Assembly (NCBI RefSeq): GCF_002019645.1
Contig: NZ_KV917374.1
Coordinates: forward strand, 4,561,161-4,625,160
From: Litchfieldia alkalitelluris
GTDB lineage: Bacteria; Bacillota; Bacilli; Bacillales; Bacillaceae_L
Direction: 5' to 3'
Length of the DNA: 64,000 bases
Shown here: piece by piece, positions 3,491 through 45,924 of the stretch
How the letters are laid out: every line of letters begins with the position of its first letter
Position numbering within the stretch: the first letter of the stretch is position 1
Notes under the pieces: generated by a model
Database searches by the model: none
What the model saw: the letters and a program-made list of their open reading frames with translations, nothing else
What the model was told of the DNA's origin: nothing
Translations under genes and position numbers: made by a program

Positions 3491-4597
3491 ATGAAACAAC
3501 TAAAAATGTTGCTTGCAGCTTCTATCTTTTTATTCGTTATTACTTCTTCTCCATTAAGTAGTTATGCTATTTCTGCAAATGGAGCTATTTTAATGGAACA
3601 GCATTCGGGAAGAGTTTTATACGAAAAAAATGCCCATACGCCAATGCGAATTGCAAGTATCACAAAAATCATGACTGCTATATTAGCGATAGAATCAGGA
3701 AAATTAAATGAAACAGTTACGATCAGCAATAAAGCTGCAGGAACTGAAGGGTCTTCTCTATATCTTTTACCAGGAGAAAAAGCAAAACTCGAGGATTTAG
3801 TTTACGGTCTAATGTTGCGGTCAGGCAATGACTCTGCCGTAGCAATTGCTGAACATGTAGGAGGCAACTTGGAATCTTTCGTAAAAATGATGAATCAAAA
3901 AGCCAAAGAATTAGGAATGGAACAAACAATTTTCGCTAACCCACATGGTTTAGATGATCATGAAAATCATTATTCTTCAGCTTATGACATGGCCCTTGTT
4001 ACTCAATATGCAATGAAAAATGAAACTTACGCAATTATAGCCGGCACCAAATCACACACAGCAAAATCTCTGAGTGAGCATGGCACTGTCACTTGGCAAA
4101 ATAAAAACAGATTGTTAACCCAGTTGTACCCCTATTGTACAGGGGGGAAAACAGGTTATACACAAAGAGCAAAACGGACTTTAGTTACGACGGCCACTAA
4201 AGATAACCTTGATCTAATTGCTGTAACAATCAATGATCGAAATGATTGGAAGGACCACATGAGATTGTATGATCAAGCATTTAGTGAATATGAACTTGTG
4301 GATATTTTAAAGAAAGATCAAATTCCTAATCTGTTAGATGATTATTTTACAGACAACTTATTAGTAAAAGAAGATTTTATGTATCCCCTAAAACGTGAAG
4401 AAAAAGAAGCTCTTTCTCTTAAGGCTCATTTTATAAATCCTTCAAAAAAACAGGCTGAAGGAAAAGCTGCTATTAAAATAGGTGAGATCGATATTTATAT
4501 GAAGGAAGACGTTATAGGTGAAGTTCCGCTTTATTTTAATAATATATTACCGAAAGAGCCTAAAAGTTGGTGGGATAAGCTTAAAGATGCTTTTTAA
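3491..4597 (+). CDS. dacB: D-alanyl-D-alanine carboxypeptidase, DacB (PBP5*) type
   Basis: A low-molecular-mass penicillin-binding protein (peptidase S11) that trims the terminal D-Ala from peptidoglycan stem peptides. In Bacillus, DacB acts on the spore cortex and controls its cross-linking. Seen: an N-terminal signal peptide (about 1-26), the active-site SxxK (Ser56-Ile-Thr-Lys59), SGN at 111-113 and KTG at 220-222, followed by a C-terminal beta domain. The 368-residue length and the segments LRSGNDSAVAIAEHVGG and NPHGLDDHENHYSSAYDM closely resemble B. subtilis DacB as I remember it, more than DacA or DacF. The start follows an AGAGGAG site. It stands alone after the divergent rRNA operon; the spmA/spmB genes that follow dacB in B. 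subtilis are absent. Confidence 0.9.
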   Translation: MKQLKMLLAASIFLFVITSSPLSSYAISANGAILMEQHSGRVLYEKNAHTPMRIASITKIMTAILAIESGKLNETVTISNKAAGTEGSSLYLLPGEKAKLEDLVYGLMLRSGNDSAVAIAEHVGGNLESFVKMMNQKAKELGMEQTIFANPHGLDDHENHYSSAYDMALVTQYAMKNETYAIIAGTKSHTAKSLSEHGTVTWQNKNRLLTQLYPYCTGGKTGYTQRAKRTLVTTATKDNLDLIAVTINDRNDWKDHMRLYDQAFSEYELVDILKKDQIPNLLDDYFTDNLLVKEDFMYPLKREEKEALSLKAHFINPSKKQAEGKAAIKIGEIDIYMKEDVIGEVPLYFNNILPKEPKSWWDKLKDAF

Positions 4598-4737
4598 CAG
4601 GAGAATCATTTATTAAAGTAAGCTACCCCCAATAGGTCAGCTATAGTTGTTCTCTACACTCACGCAACAATCTCCTCTTAGCTAAATGTATTTAAATAAA
4701 CTTTCGTTTGTAAGTTAATGACTGTATTCCGTTTTAC

Positions 4738-4770
4738 AAAGCTGTCCCTAGATAGGACGGCTTTTTTTCT
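4738..4770 (+). terminator. intrinsic terminator between dacB and cysP
   Basis: GCTGTCC pairs with GGACGGC (one G-T pair) around a short loop and is followed by seven T. It ends transcription from dacB, or attenuates a leader of the next gene. The 4598-4893 gap shows no riboswitch core that I recognise. Confidence 0.65.
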
Positions 4771-4893
4771 TTTAGCATTGAAAAGTTTTTGTGATAAAAG
4801 TTCACTGTCATTCGCCTTCATACATATACTTATATAAATTAGTAAAATACGCAAATACACAGAAAAATCTTCTGAGAAGAAAGGGTCAGTCCT

Positions 4894-5970
4894 ATGCTAT
4901 TGACATATGTTGCCATTGCCGTTGCTCTTTTCTTTGCAATGAATATTGGTGCAAGCGGCACCGCGGCTTCAATGGGCGCACCTTATGGTTCGGGTGCGAT
5001 TAAGAATAAACGGTTAGCATTGCTTTTAGTTGCAATATCTGCATTTCTAGGAGCTGTTATAGGTGGTGGAGAAGTTGTAAATACGATTGGAAAAGGAATC
5101 ATTCCTACTGATATATTAACTGTAAATGTTGTAGTTATTATACTTACGGGAGCCACTTTCACATTATTTCTTTCCAATCTAATGGGTATCCCACTCTCCA
5201 CAAGTGAGGTAACTGTAGGTTCTATTGTTGGTGTTGGAGCAGCCTATCATGCCGTTTATACTAGTAAATTAATAGTTATTATATCTTTTTGGGTAATCAT
5301 CCCCATACTTTCATTTTTAATTACCCTCATTTTGGGGAGATTGATAAACTATGCCGAAAATCGTTGGACACATTTAAAAGGACATGGAAAATGGGCAAAG
5401 TGGTTATCTATTCTTCTTATCATAGGTGGTTGCTTTGAGGCATTTTCAGCTGGGATGAACAATGTAGCTAATTCGATTGGTCCACTGGTAGGGGCTGAAA
5501 TTCTTACTGCTAGTACGGGAATTATGATTGGCGCAATTTTCACTGCGATTGGAGCCCTTACATTAGGGAGTAAAGTATTAGAAACGAACGGGAAAAAGAT
5601 TACAAAGCTTTCATTGCTTCAAGGAAGTGCTGTCTCTTTTACAGGGGGAGGACTTGTCGTGATTGCATCCCTCTTTGGCCTTCCTATCCCTCTTACACAG
5701 GTAACCACCTGTGGCATTTTAGGTGTGGGCACAGCCAAAGATGGATTAAAAGTTTTACAGAAGGATGTAATTAAACGAATTGCAATGGTTTGGGTCATTT
5801 CTCCACTTGCATCTTTAGTTGTTTCCTATTCTTTAATTAATCTCTTTGCAGTATTTAATTTATACAATCTACTAGTCATCTTTAGTACATTAATTGCAAC
5901 GATAGGATCTATCTATTTATTAAAGCTTGTAAGAAAAGAAAAGCGTAACCTTAATAATGATAAAGCCTAA
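4894..5970 (+). CDS. cysP: PiT-family anion permease, CysP-like sulfate transporter
   Basis: A ten- to eleven-helix membrane protein of the PiT (inorganic phosphate transporter) family. Two signature repeats are visible: the N-terminal AMNIGASGTAASMGAPYG and the internal FSAGMNNVANSIGPLVGAE, each followed by helices. Their sequence, the segment GIPLSTSEVTVGSIVGVG and the length (358 aa) resemble B. subtilis CysP, a proton-coupled sulfate permease, more than PitA. Sulfate is therefore the likeliest substrate, though phosphate cannot be excluded. The start ATG follows GAAAGG. It is a single gene flanked by terminators; the cysH operon in which B. subtilis cysP sits is not here. Confidence 0.82.
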   Translation: MLLTYVAIAVALFFAMNIGASGTAASMGAPYGSGAIKNKRLALLLVAISAFLGAVIGGGEVVNTIGKGIIPTDILTVNVVVIILTGATFTLFLSNLMGIPLSTSEVTVGSIVGVGAAYHAVYTSKLIVIISFWVIIPILSFLITLILGRLINYAENRWTHLKGHGKWAKWLSILLIIGGCFEAFSAGMNNVANSIGPLVGAEILTASTGIMIGAIFTAIGALTLGSKVLETNGKKITKLSLLQGSAVSFTGGGLVVIASLFGLPIPLTQVTTCGILGVGTAKDGLKVLQKDVIKRIAMVWVISPLASLVVSYSLINLFAVFNLYNLLVIFSTLIATIGSIYLLKLVRKEKRNLNNDKA

Positions 5971-44745: not shown

Positions 44746-45116
44746 TTTCTAACCTTGCAACTCCCGTAATCTATAATTAAATCCGTATCTTTTTCGTTTT
44801 TTCATCAGACAATTATTTAACGTCTCACTAGTAACTCTGTTACATATTTTAGTGTTGGGAAATCAACAAGTAAACCCTATGCCATAATATTTTCTAAAGA
44901 AAGTTCATTTATAATAGATTCTAACTTAGTCTAAAGTAACATATCTATATTTAATACATTCAATCTACTTGTCAGCCTATTTAGGAGAATAATTCATTTT
45001 TTAATAAACGAATAGTGATGGTCATTATAGTGGACAAGATACAAATAGGAAGAAAGTTAAAATTATTGCATTTGTTTAGATCTATTCTTTATCCTATACT
45101 TAAGGAGGTGATTTAG
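44746..45116. other. gene-free gap before the OsmC gene
   Basis: About 370 bp, A+T-rich, with no clear structure or operator. The end holds AAGGAGGTGATT, the strong site for the OsmC gene. Confidence 0.5.
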
Positions 45117-45584
45117 TTGAGTGAACCTATTGAATTAACGGAAATAACTATATTACAAAAAGATACAGCCAACAAAATCCGTCAAGCAAATATTAAAGGA
45201 TTTGATGAACCAGTAGTATATGGTGTGCATGGAGGCGTAAAAAAATTTTATGGGGTAGAACCTGATATTGAATTTCCTTCAACCTTAGATCATATCGTAT
45301 CTGCAGCTGGAGGCTGACTAGTTGGTACCCTATCTGGCGCGCTGGAGGCGCGTAAAATTCCAACCACAAATAATGTTAGAGCAAAGGTTCAGGGCACTAT
45401 AGAAGCTCCTGAAGGCGTATTAAAAATAACGAAAATAAGCTGTCATTATAATGTCAAAGTTCCTATTGGGAAAAAAGAGGCTGCCGAAAGAGCCTTGTCA
45501 GTTTTTGAACGATATTGCCCTGTTGCTCAAACTCTTAAAGGAGCTGTAGAATTTAAGCACTCCTGGGAAATCGAGGAATATTAG
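45117..45584 (+). CDS. OsmC-family peroxiredoxin, putative selenoprotein (UGA = Sec67)
   Basis: An OsmC/Ohr-family thiol peroxidase that reduces organic hydroperoxides. The frame opens at TTG behind AAGGAGGTGATT and reads 66 codons (IELTEITILQKDT, VVYGVHGGVKKFYG, FPSTLDHIVSAAGG) to an in-frame TGA at 45315-45317. It then continues without another stop for 88 residues (LVGTLSGALEARKIPT, KISCHYNVKVP, FERYCPVAQTLKG) to TAG at 45582-45584. OsmC proteins have a peroxidatic Cys after the AAGG-like turn and a resolving Cys in the CPV motif, about 66 residues apart; here they are position 67 (TGA) and Cys134. The TGA is exactly the peroxidatic position. A GC-rich bSECIS-like hairpin follows. If Sec is not inserted, the product is a truncated 66-aa fragment. 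A Cys-to-stop mutation is the alternative. Confidence 0.85.
45336..45353 (+). promoter_or_regulatory. bSECIS-like hairpin downstream of the UGA
   Basis: CGCGC (45338-45342) and GCGCG (45348-45352) pair around a TGGAG loop; a flanking G-T pair can extend the stem. The loop begins 25 nt after the UGA, and G is among its first two bases, as described for bacterial SECIS elements (loop about 16-37 nt from UGA, guanine near its start). The G+C content is far above its surroundings although the sequence also encodes GALEAR. Confidence 0.65.
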
Positions 45585-45643
45585 TGTAAAGCCAATAGGG
45601 AAATGTCCCTTAATTTGTAGGGGGACATTGGTCTTATTTAGAA

Positions 45644-45843
45644 TTTAAAAATAGACGGAGTTTTTCCGGTTAAAATGCAAATAGAACTTCATTTAGGGTA
45701 AATAAGCGGAGTTTTTTCCACTAACCGAAGCAAAATTACCTAGATTTCACGTTTTGGAGTCAATAGGTGGAATTTCTCCGTCTAATTAGGCTATTATATG
45801 TGCTATTTGCTAATTAAGAGAAATTTCTCCGCTTATTTATCAA
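45644..45843 (-). repeat. palindrome-rich dispersed repeat, family B copy 3 (inverted)
   Basis: Reverse complement of the motif order seen at 28172 and 41110: on the plus strand AATAGACGGAGTTTTTCCGG, AAATAAGCGGAGTTTTTTCC, AATAGGTGGAATTTCTCCG, GAGAAATTTCTCCGCTTATT. Non-coding. It separates the OsmC gene from the next terminator. Confidence 0.7.
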
Positions 45844-45924
45844 TCCATTCTGATTCCCTCATCTGGGTCCGGGTGGTTTGCTTTTTTATGTTTGGGTATA
45901 AGCCTGTTTTGTCCAGAAGTGGTA

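What the first reader, a model, noticed from the sequence alone, without database searches (positions are those of the whole stretch)
45117..45584. OsmC-family gene with in-frame TGA at the peroxidatic cysteine: probable selenoprotein
The reading frame is continuous over 156 codons apart from one TGA (45315-45317). OsmC/Ohr proteins have a peroxidatic Cys roughly 66 residues before the resolving Cys of the CPV motif; here the distance from the TGA to Cys134 is 67, and the flanking AAGG-x-LVGTLSGALEAR matches the family pattern around that Cys. No other stop or shift disturbs the gene, the ribosome binding site is strong and the terminator region is intact. Cysteine-to-Sec replacement in OsmC-like proteins has been reported from environmental bacteria, but Sec is uncommon in Bacillaceae.
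Basis: partly seen in the sequence, partly recalled or inferred. Interest (0 to 1): 0.92.

Follow-up and report, generated by a model that had tools for sequence, protein, structure and literature searches.

The report
Selenocysteine-containing OsmC-family protein
A bacterial gene that looks broken by a stop signal very probably uses that signal to place selenium, as the amino acid selenocysteine, at the active site of a stress-protection enzyme, and related genes in other bacteria keep the same signal.

Summary
The ORF at 45117-45584 (+) is an OsmC-family gene with one in-frame TGA (45315-45317, codon 67) at the column of the peroxidatic Cys. Its genome has tRNA-Sec(UCA), selA, selB and selD; SelD has its own TGA. 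Among 44 distinct genes found (window included) that cover the position, 44 have TGA. They lie in 41 genomes of Bacillota, Methylomirabilota and Acidobacteriota; 40 of 41 show selA, the exception being held as 1.3 Mb only. In 398 sampled genomes of the class, the 14 carriers are all among the 86 with selA. A 7-bp hairpin with loop GGA, 26 nt after the TGA, fits published bacterial SECIS rules. In 23 Bacilli rows its codons are almost frozen, while 0 of 55 other conserved columns keep one codon. An Ohr/OsmC-type peroxidase with a Sec67-Cys134 selenenylsulfide is the likely mechanism (inferred). A marine OsmC-like selenoprotein (motif UxxT) is known; this branch has UxxG and scores 22.6 bits against NCBIfam's OsmC_like_Se (cut-off 95). 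It is a distinct, apparently uncatalogued subfamily: a new variant of a known kind.

The parts
45117..45584 (+). Sec-OsmC gene: TTG start, 155 residues, TAG stop
   Evidence: 43 related genes
45102..45111 (+). Shine-Dalgarno-like AAGGAGGTGA
   Evidence: read directly from the sequence
45315..45317 (+). in-frame TGA, codon 67, read as Sec; column of the OsmC peroxidatic Cys
   Evidence: TGA in 44 of 44 distinct genes; aligns with Cys57 of 1ukk and the corresponding Cys of 1ml8
45337..45353 (+). putative bSECIS apical hairpin GCGCGCT-GGA-GGCGCGT; 26 nt lie between the TGA and its loop
45321..45364 (+). possible lower stem GTTGG...CCAAC (45321-45325 with 45360-45364) closing the hairpin; predicted in only part of the single-sequence folds
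45516..45521 (+). Cys134-Pro135, predicted resolving Cys, invariant in the 27 aligned members
45602..45629 (+). terminator-like hairpin after the gene

Best explanation
The gene encodes a selenoprotein of the OsmC/Ohr superfamily. SelB carrying Sec-tRNA-Sec binds a hairpin just after codon 67 and decodes UGA as selenocysteine. The selenolate of Sec67 most likely reduces a hydroperoxide (organic rather than H2O2), and the selenenic acid is resolved by Cys134 as a selenenylsulfide. This is then reduced by a dithiol donor: lipoylated proteins in known Ohr/OsmC enzymes, or possibly bacillithiol/bacilliredoxin in Bacillales. Shown here: conserved gene, conserved TGA, Sec machinery, hairpin under synonymous constraint, conserved Sec/Cys pair. 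Inferred: that Sec is physically inserted, the peroxidase reaction and the reductant. The confidence given is for the selenoprotein claim; the peroxidase reaction itself I put at about 0.6.
For: tRNA-Sec 57.8 bits against a cut-off of 47, ARAGORN tRNA-SeC with tca anticodon, selA 552 bits, selB 363.8, selD 425.6 with its own TGA. TGA at the column in 44 of 44 distinct genes. selA in 40 of 41 carrier genomes. 14 of 14 class-sample carriers within the 86 of 398 genomes with selA, hypergeometric 2e-10 ignoring kinship. Codons 75, 76 and 78 identical in 23 of 23 rows and codons 74 and 79 in 22 of 23, while 0 of 55 other conserved columns have a single codon; permutation 0 of 200000. Hairpin pairs are standard in 98.6% of cells against 20-69% when slid. 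R22, D58, H59, Sec67, Cys134, P135 and Q138 invariant in 27 rows. Two-Cys chemistry and lipoyl reductant of Ohr/OsmC: PMC8945050 (passages seen).
Against: The hairpin of the window alone is no more stable than shuffles (z -0.84 and -0.74). Two-sided pair changes come from only two related groups; 14 of 500 shuffles reach the count of such pairs and 25 of 500 the count of pair types. Columns 24/38 are unpaired in the four NC10 rows, and single-sequence folds of those rows give other structures. One carrier genome (that of L051) shows no selA, but only 1.3 Mb of it is held. Outside the 27 aligned rows, the most distant carrier L083 has Tyr for H59 and Arg for Q138. No expression, mass or selenium data. 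No conserved neighbour supports the peroxidase reading, and no structure was obtained.
Confidence: 0.95

Rival explanations
1. The TGA is a real stop (nonsense mutation or sequencing error) and the gene is a pseudogene or an ordinary Cys gene misread.
For: Decayed relics of this gene exist: L027 in the same genome and L056 elsewhere, about 41-43 residues each; a 33-residue C-terminal match in G111; a frameshifted copy in G112.
Against: TGA at the same codon in 44 of 44 distinct genes from 41 genomes in three phyla, with both halves conserved.
Confidence: 0.01
2. The TGA ends one peptide and translation re-initiates downstream, giving two polypeptides.
For: In 4 of the 27 loci clustered an ORF starting after the TGA was listed in the second half (L039, L041, L042 at one place, L051 at another).
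Against: Those starts lie at two different places, and the other loci listed none (the listing had a 70-residue floor, so this is a weak test). The OsmC domain spans the TGA and would be cut at the catalytic position. Presence follows selA, which re-initiation would not need. The hairpin codons are nearly frozen.
Confidence: 0.02
3. It is a selenoprotein, but not a hydroperoxidase: the Sec/Cys pair serves another redox task (for example disulfide reduction, or reactive sulfur or selenium species).
For: The window protein is distant from characterised Ohr and OsmC (NCBIfam scores 13-30 bits, each below its cut-off). The residue 9 before the catalytic position is Asp (D58) where 1ml8 has Glu, so the catalytic surroundings may differ.
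Against: Both catalytic positions and the CP motif follow OsmC; studied OsmC/Ohr members are hydroperoxidases (PMC8945050, passages).
Confidence: 0.35

Closest known systems
OsmC-like selenoprotein of marine metagenomes (PMC1088965, PMC2398784; COG1765 / PF02566, motif UxxT)
   Same: OsmC superfamily with Sec as the redox residue
   Different: The motif here is UxxG in 44 of 44 genes; found here in Bacillota, Methylomirabilota and Acidobacteriota genomes. The marine sequences themselves could not be fetched for a direct comparison.
NCBIfam NF041052 OsmC_like_Se, OsmC-related (seleno)protein
   Same: Homologous over residues 53-151; 26 of 27 members match at E<=0.01
   Different: 22.6 bits against a cut-off of 95 for the window protein; the best E-value among 27 members is only 1.3e-06
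Solved OsmC-type proteins 1ukk, 1nye, 1qwi and 1ml8 (that 1ml8 is E. coli YhfA is recalled), and NCBIfam NF008009 PRK10738
   Same: Sequence relatives with Cys at both catalytic positions in the alignments shown
   Different: Cys in place of Sec; weak similarity (1ml8 26.1 bits by phmmer; 27-32 bits by profile); the match begins near residue 50, leaving this protein's N-terminal part with R22 and YGVHGGV unmatched

Membership tests
OsmC/Ohr superfamily (Pfam PF02566) | Profile score above the gathering cut-off | tested here: met
   54 bits vs 27.5 with the TGA read as Cys; 45.4 bits in the whole-genome search, which reads stops through
OsmC/Ohr superfamily (Pfam PF02566) | Two catalytic Cys positions about 66 residues apart | tested here: met
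   Sec67 and Cys134 align with Cys57 and Cys123 of 1ukk; both invariant in A3
OsmC/Ohr superfamily (Pfam PF02566) | Lipoyl- or thiol-dependent peroxidase activity | not testable with these tools
   needs purified protein
OsmC/Ohr superfamily (Pfam PF02566) | OsmC fold of the predicted structure | not tested
   the prediction job was interrupted and the tool then switched off
Bacterial selenoprotein | Sec machinery in the genome | tested here: met
Bacterial selenoprotein | bSECIS: loop 3-9 nt, upper stem 4-16 bp, G in the first two loop positions, 16-37 nt from UGA to the loop, MFE <= -7.5 kcal/mol (rules from PMC13188914, section 5 read) | tested here: met
   loop GGA, 7 bp (two of them G-U), spacing 26 nt, -14.4 kcal/mol for the whole fold; tested on the window, not on each relative
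Bacterial selenoprotein | Sec shown in the protein | not testable with these tools
   needs 75Se labelling or mass spectrometry
NCBIfam NF041052 OsmC_like_Se | Score above the curated cut-off of 95 bits | tested here: not met
   22.6 bits for the window protein
Marine OsmC-like selenoprotein (UxxT) | UxxT motif | tested here: not met
   ULVGT 28, ULTGT 10, UMTGT 5, ULAGT 1 of 44

The most novel reading that the evidence does not exclude
A separate OsmC subfamily that exists only as a selenoprotein. No Cys ortholog was found among 44 genes in three phyla, which suggests a reaction or substrate for which Cys will not do. The gene is lost or decays rather than reverting to Cys, is duplicated in some genomes, and may have moved between phyla. 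It is not recognised by NCBIfam and not listed as such in the 2026 catalogue of prokaryotic selenoproteins.
Probability: 0.6. Interest if true: 0.6.

Novelty: new variant of a known kind. Interest (0 to 1): 0.5.

Why it matters
Genes like this are easily annotated as pseudogenes or as two short ORFs (my knowledge). The subfamily offers a natural test of why a redox enzyme keeps selenium. It occurs in cultivable Bacillales such as Litchfieldia, Planococcus and Rossellomorea; in the window's genome it stands beside one ordinary Cys OsmC (L078); and no Cys version of it was met in the searches made here. It also suggests that Sec use in Bacillales goes beyond the 3 selenoprotein families that a 2006 survey counted there (PMC1794560, passage).

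Tried and rejected
Conserved neighbourhood: ORFs of at least 70 residues in 27 loci (the window region and L030-L055) were clustered. Only lineage-specific synteny was found: four Planococcus/Planomicrobium loci share one set of neighbours, four or five Rossellomorea/Bacillus loci another, three NC10 loci a third. No operon argument is made. In the window the nearest listed ORFs on either side lie on the other strand, apart from a 75-residue ORF at 45798.

Mobile or viral origin: no match in plasmids or phages by tblastn. In viral contigs 7 stretches matched a pattern and none encoded a relative.

Cys orthologs: matches without TGA were distant ordinary OsmC proteins with Cys (L070 and L078 about 26% identity, L086 about 26%, L084 and L085 at 31-34 profile bits and without the YGVHGGV motif) or relics (L027, L069). 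The genome-contig scan used exact peptide patterns and finds close relatives only, and only samples of the class and phylum were searched, so a Cys ortholog elsewhere is not excluded.

Single-sequence folding energy gave no support by itself. The structure prediction was interrupted and then unavailable, so no fold comparison was made.

Rows left out: the synonymous-codon count used 23 Bacilli rows of the 44 genes; L060, L061, L064 and L068 of the same type were not in it. The pair count A4 has 42 of the 44 (L060 and the frameshifted L068 left out), and its L067 row was given three bases late. The tree has 40 Sec rows (L060, L061, L064 and L068 left out) and long branches; the places of L083, L086 and L078 are unsure.

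Full report
Observation. The frame at 45117-45584 (+) begins TTG, 5 nt after AAGGAGGTGA, runs 155 residues and ends in TAG, with one in-frame TGA at 45315-45317 as codon 67. With the TGA read as Cys it is an OsmC-family protein (PF02566, 54 bits against 27.5). The profile of the family aligns residue 67 with Cys57 and Cys134 with Cys123 of the OsmC chain 1ukk, so the TGA stands at the peroxidatic position.

Machinery. The window lies at 4561161-4625160 of contig 1 of a 5.43 Mb genome rated 100% complete. That genome has a tRNA-Sec of 57.8 bits against a cut-off of 47, with anticodon tca by ARAGORN; selA at 552 bits against 267.9; selB at 363.8 against 242.25; and selD at 425.6 against 125, itself with one TGA at codon 21 in GGUGC. 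selA, selB and the tRNA gene lie within about 4 kb of each other. The fold after the selD TGA also gives a hairpin with G first in its loop, 33 nt away. G001, of the same genus, has the same gene at the same coordinates as the Litchfieldia salsa record L030 (identical DNA), so the genus is most likely Litchfieldia (inference).

Relatives. A pattern-based scan of genome contigs gave 27 loci: 26 cover the position and one (L056) is a 43-residue relic. Searches of the genus (3 genomes, 2 with a match), family (17 genomes, 4 with a match), class (398, 16 with a match) and phylum (398, 9 with a match) added more. After removing records seen twice (L025 = L030, L057 = L034, L058 = L043, L059 = L046, L062 = L048, checked; L010, L024 and L079 are the window's own), 44 distinct genes in 41 genomes cover codon 67, and 44 of 44 have TGA (recounted). 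One of them (L068, G112) is frameshifted further on. Identity to the window falls to 46-53% in NC10/Methylomirabilota and Acidobacteriota and about 40% in G771. Matches without TGA were distant OsmC proteins with Cys or relics.

Co-occurrence with Sec use. Of the 41 carrier genomes, 40 show selA: G000, G001, G003, G006 and those of L034 and L047; G068, G083, G086, G105, G112, G201, G271, G355; 26 of 27. The exception, the genome of L051, is held as 1.3 Mb only. In the class sample 86 of 398 genomes have selA and the 14 carriers are all among them (hypergeometric 2e-10, which ignores kinship). The two further class genomes with a weak match (G111 relic, G209 ordinary OsmC) also have selA. The 17 genomes of the window's family all have selA, but only 4 of the 17 have the gene, so the machinery does not depend on it.

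SECIS-like hairpin. After the TGA come 26 nt, then loop GGA closed by 7 pairs (45337-45343 with 45347-45353), which fits the published bacterial rules (PMC13188914 section 5, read). In 23 Bacilli rows the codons under the hairpin hardly vary: 74 GGC 22 of 23, 75 GCG 23 of 23, 76 CTG 23 of 23, 78 GCG 23 of 23, 79 CGT 22 of 23. Among 55 other conserved columns with four or more synonyms, mean entropy is 1.67 bits, the lowest 0.76, and none has a single codon; permutation 0 of 200000. Over 41 distinct rows 98.6% of pair cells are standard, against 20-69% when the partner is slid. There is a two-sided G-C to A-U change in L028 and L029 (one related pair), and G-U to U-A or U-G in the four NC10 rows. 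Against this: the NC10 rows break one pair, the counts of two-sided pairs and of pair types are reached by 14 and 25 of 500 shuffles, and the window's own fold energy is not unusual (z -0.84).

Mechanism. In 27 aligned members R22, D58, H59, Sec67, Cys134, P135 and Q138 are invariant; in the distant L083, H59 is Tyr and Q138 is Arg. Cys109 is not conserved: it is replaced in L038, L044 and the NC10 and Acidobacteriota rows, so Cys134 is the likely partner of Sec67. Known Ohr/OsmC enzymes reduce hydroperoxides with one Cys, form an intramolecular disulfide with the second, and are re-reduced by lipoylated proteins (PMC8945050, passages). By analogy Sec67 attacks the hydroperoxide and Cys134 resolves it. 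This step is inferred. The selenoprotein claim stands at about 0.95, the peroxidase reaction at about 0.6.

Evolution. The tree keeps its 40 Sec rows apart from three ordinary OsmC rows (99/83). The window lies next to L. salsa. The Sec motif is ULVGT in 28, ULTGT in 10, UMTGT in 5 and ULAGT in 1 of 44 genes. Second copies such as L026 in L. salsa fall in a deeper group, and the Methylomirabilota and Acidobacteriota rows fall among deeper Bacillota rows, next to the long-branched L083. Transfer between phyla is possible but was not tested.

What is known. Text searches brought up OsmC-like selenoproteins as the marine family with motif UxxT: PMC1088965 (passages), PMC2398784 (passages), and the reviews PMC9312934 (passages) and PMC13188914 (abstract, section 5, part 1 of 3 of section 7, passages). 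The word OsmC occurs once in the main text of the last. None of the titles, abstracts or passages that I saw reports a Bacillota OsmC selenoprotein; papers outside the held library were not searched. The window protein is below the cut-off of NF041052 (22.6 against 95) and of the other NCBIfam models that it matches. I therefore file it as a new variant of a known kind.

Noticed in passing
L027:1498-1644 (G000:C1:4186694-4186816): Relic of a second copy in the same genome: the first about 41 residues, then unrelated sequence. A similar relic ends just after the same motif (YGVHGGV) in Alkalihalobacillus sp. BA299 (L056:5001-5129).
   Followed up: partly
L020:1471-2529: SelD of this genome is itself a predicted selenoprotein (TGA at codon 21, GGUGC), with a hairpin whose loop lies 33 nt downstream.
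   Followed up: partly
L068 / L072 (G112): A Sec-OsmC gene with its TGA but a frameshift after about residue 92: decay or assembly error.
   Followed up: no
L065 and L071 (G086); L080 and L087 (G453); L026 and L030 (L. salsa): Genomes with two Sec-OsmC genes, both with TGA.
   Followed up: partly
L043, L046, L048, L049 about 3815-4947: In four Planococcus/Planomicrobium loci a gene that looks like a NifS-type cysteine desulfurase (name recalled, not searched) lies just before the Sec-OsmC gene on the same strand.
   Followed up: no
window 45640-45850: Several short repeats resembling GCGGAGTTTTTCC and its complement in the intergenic stretch after the gene (seen by eye).
   Followed up: no
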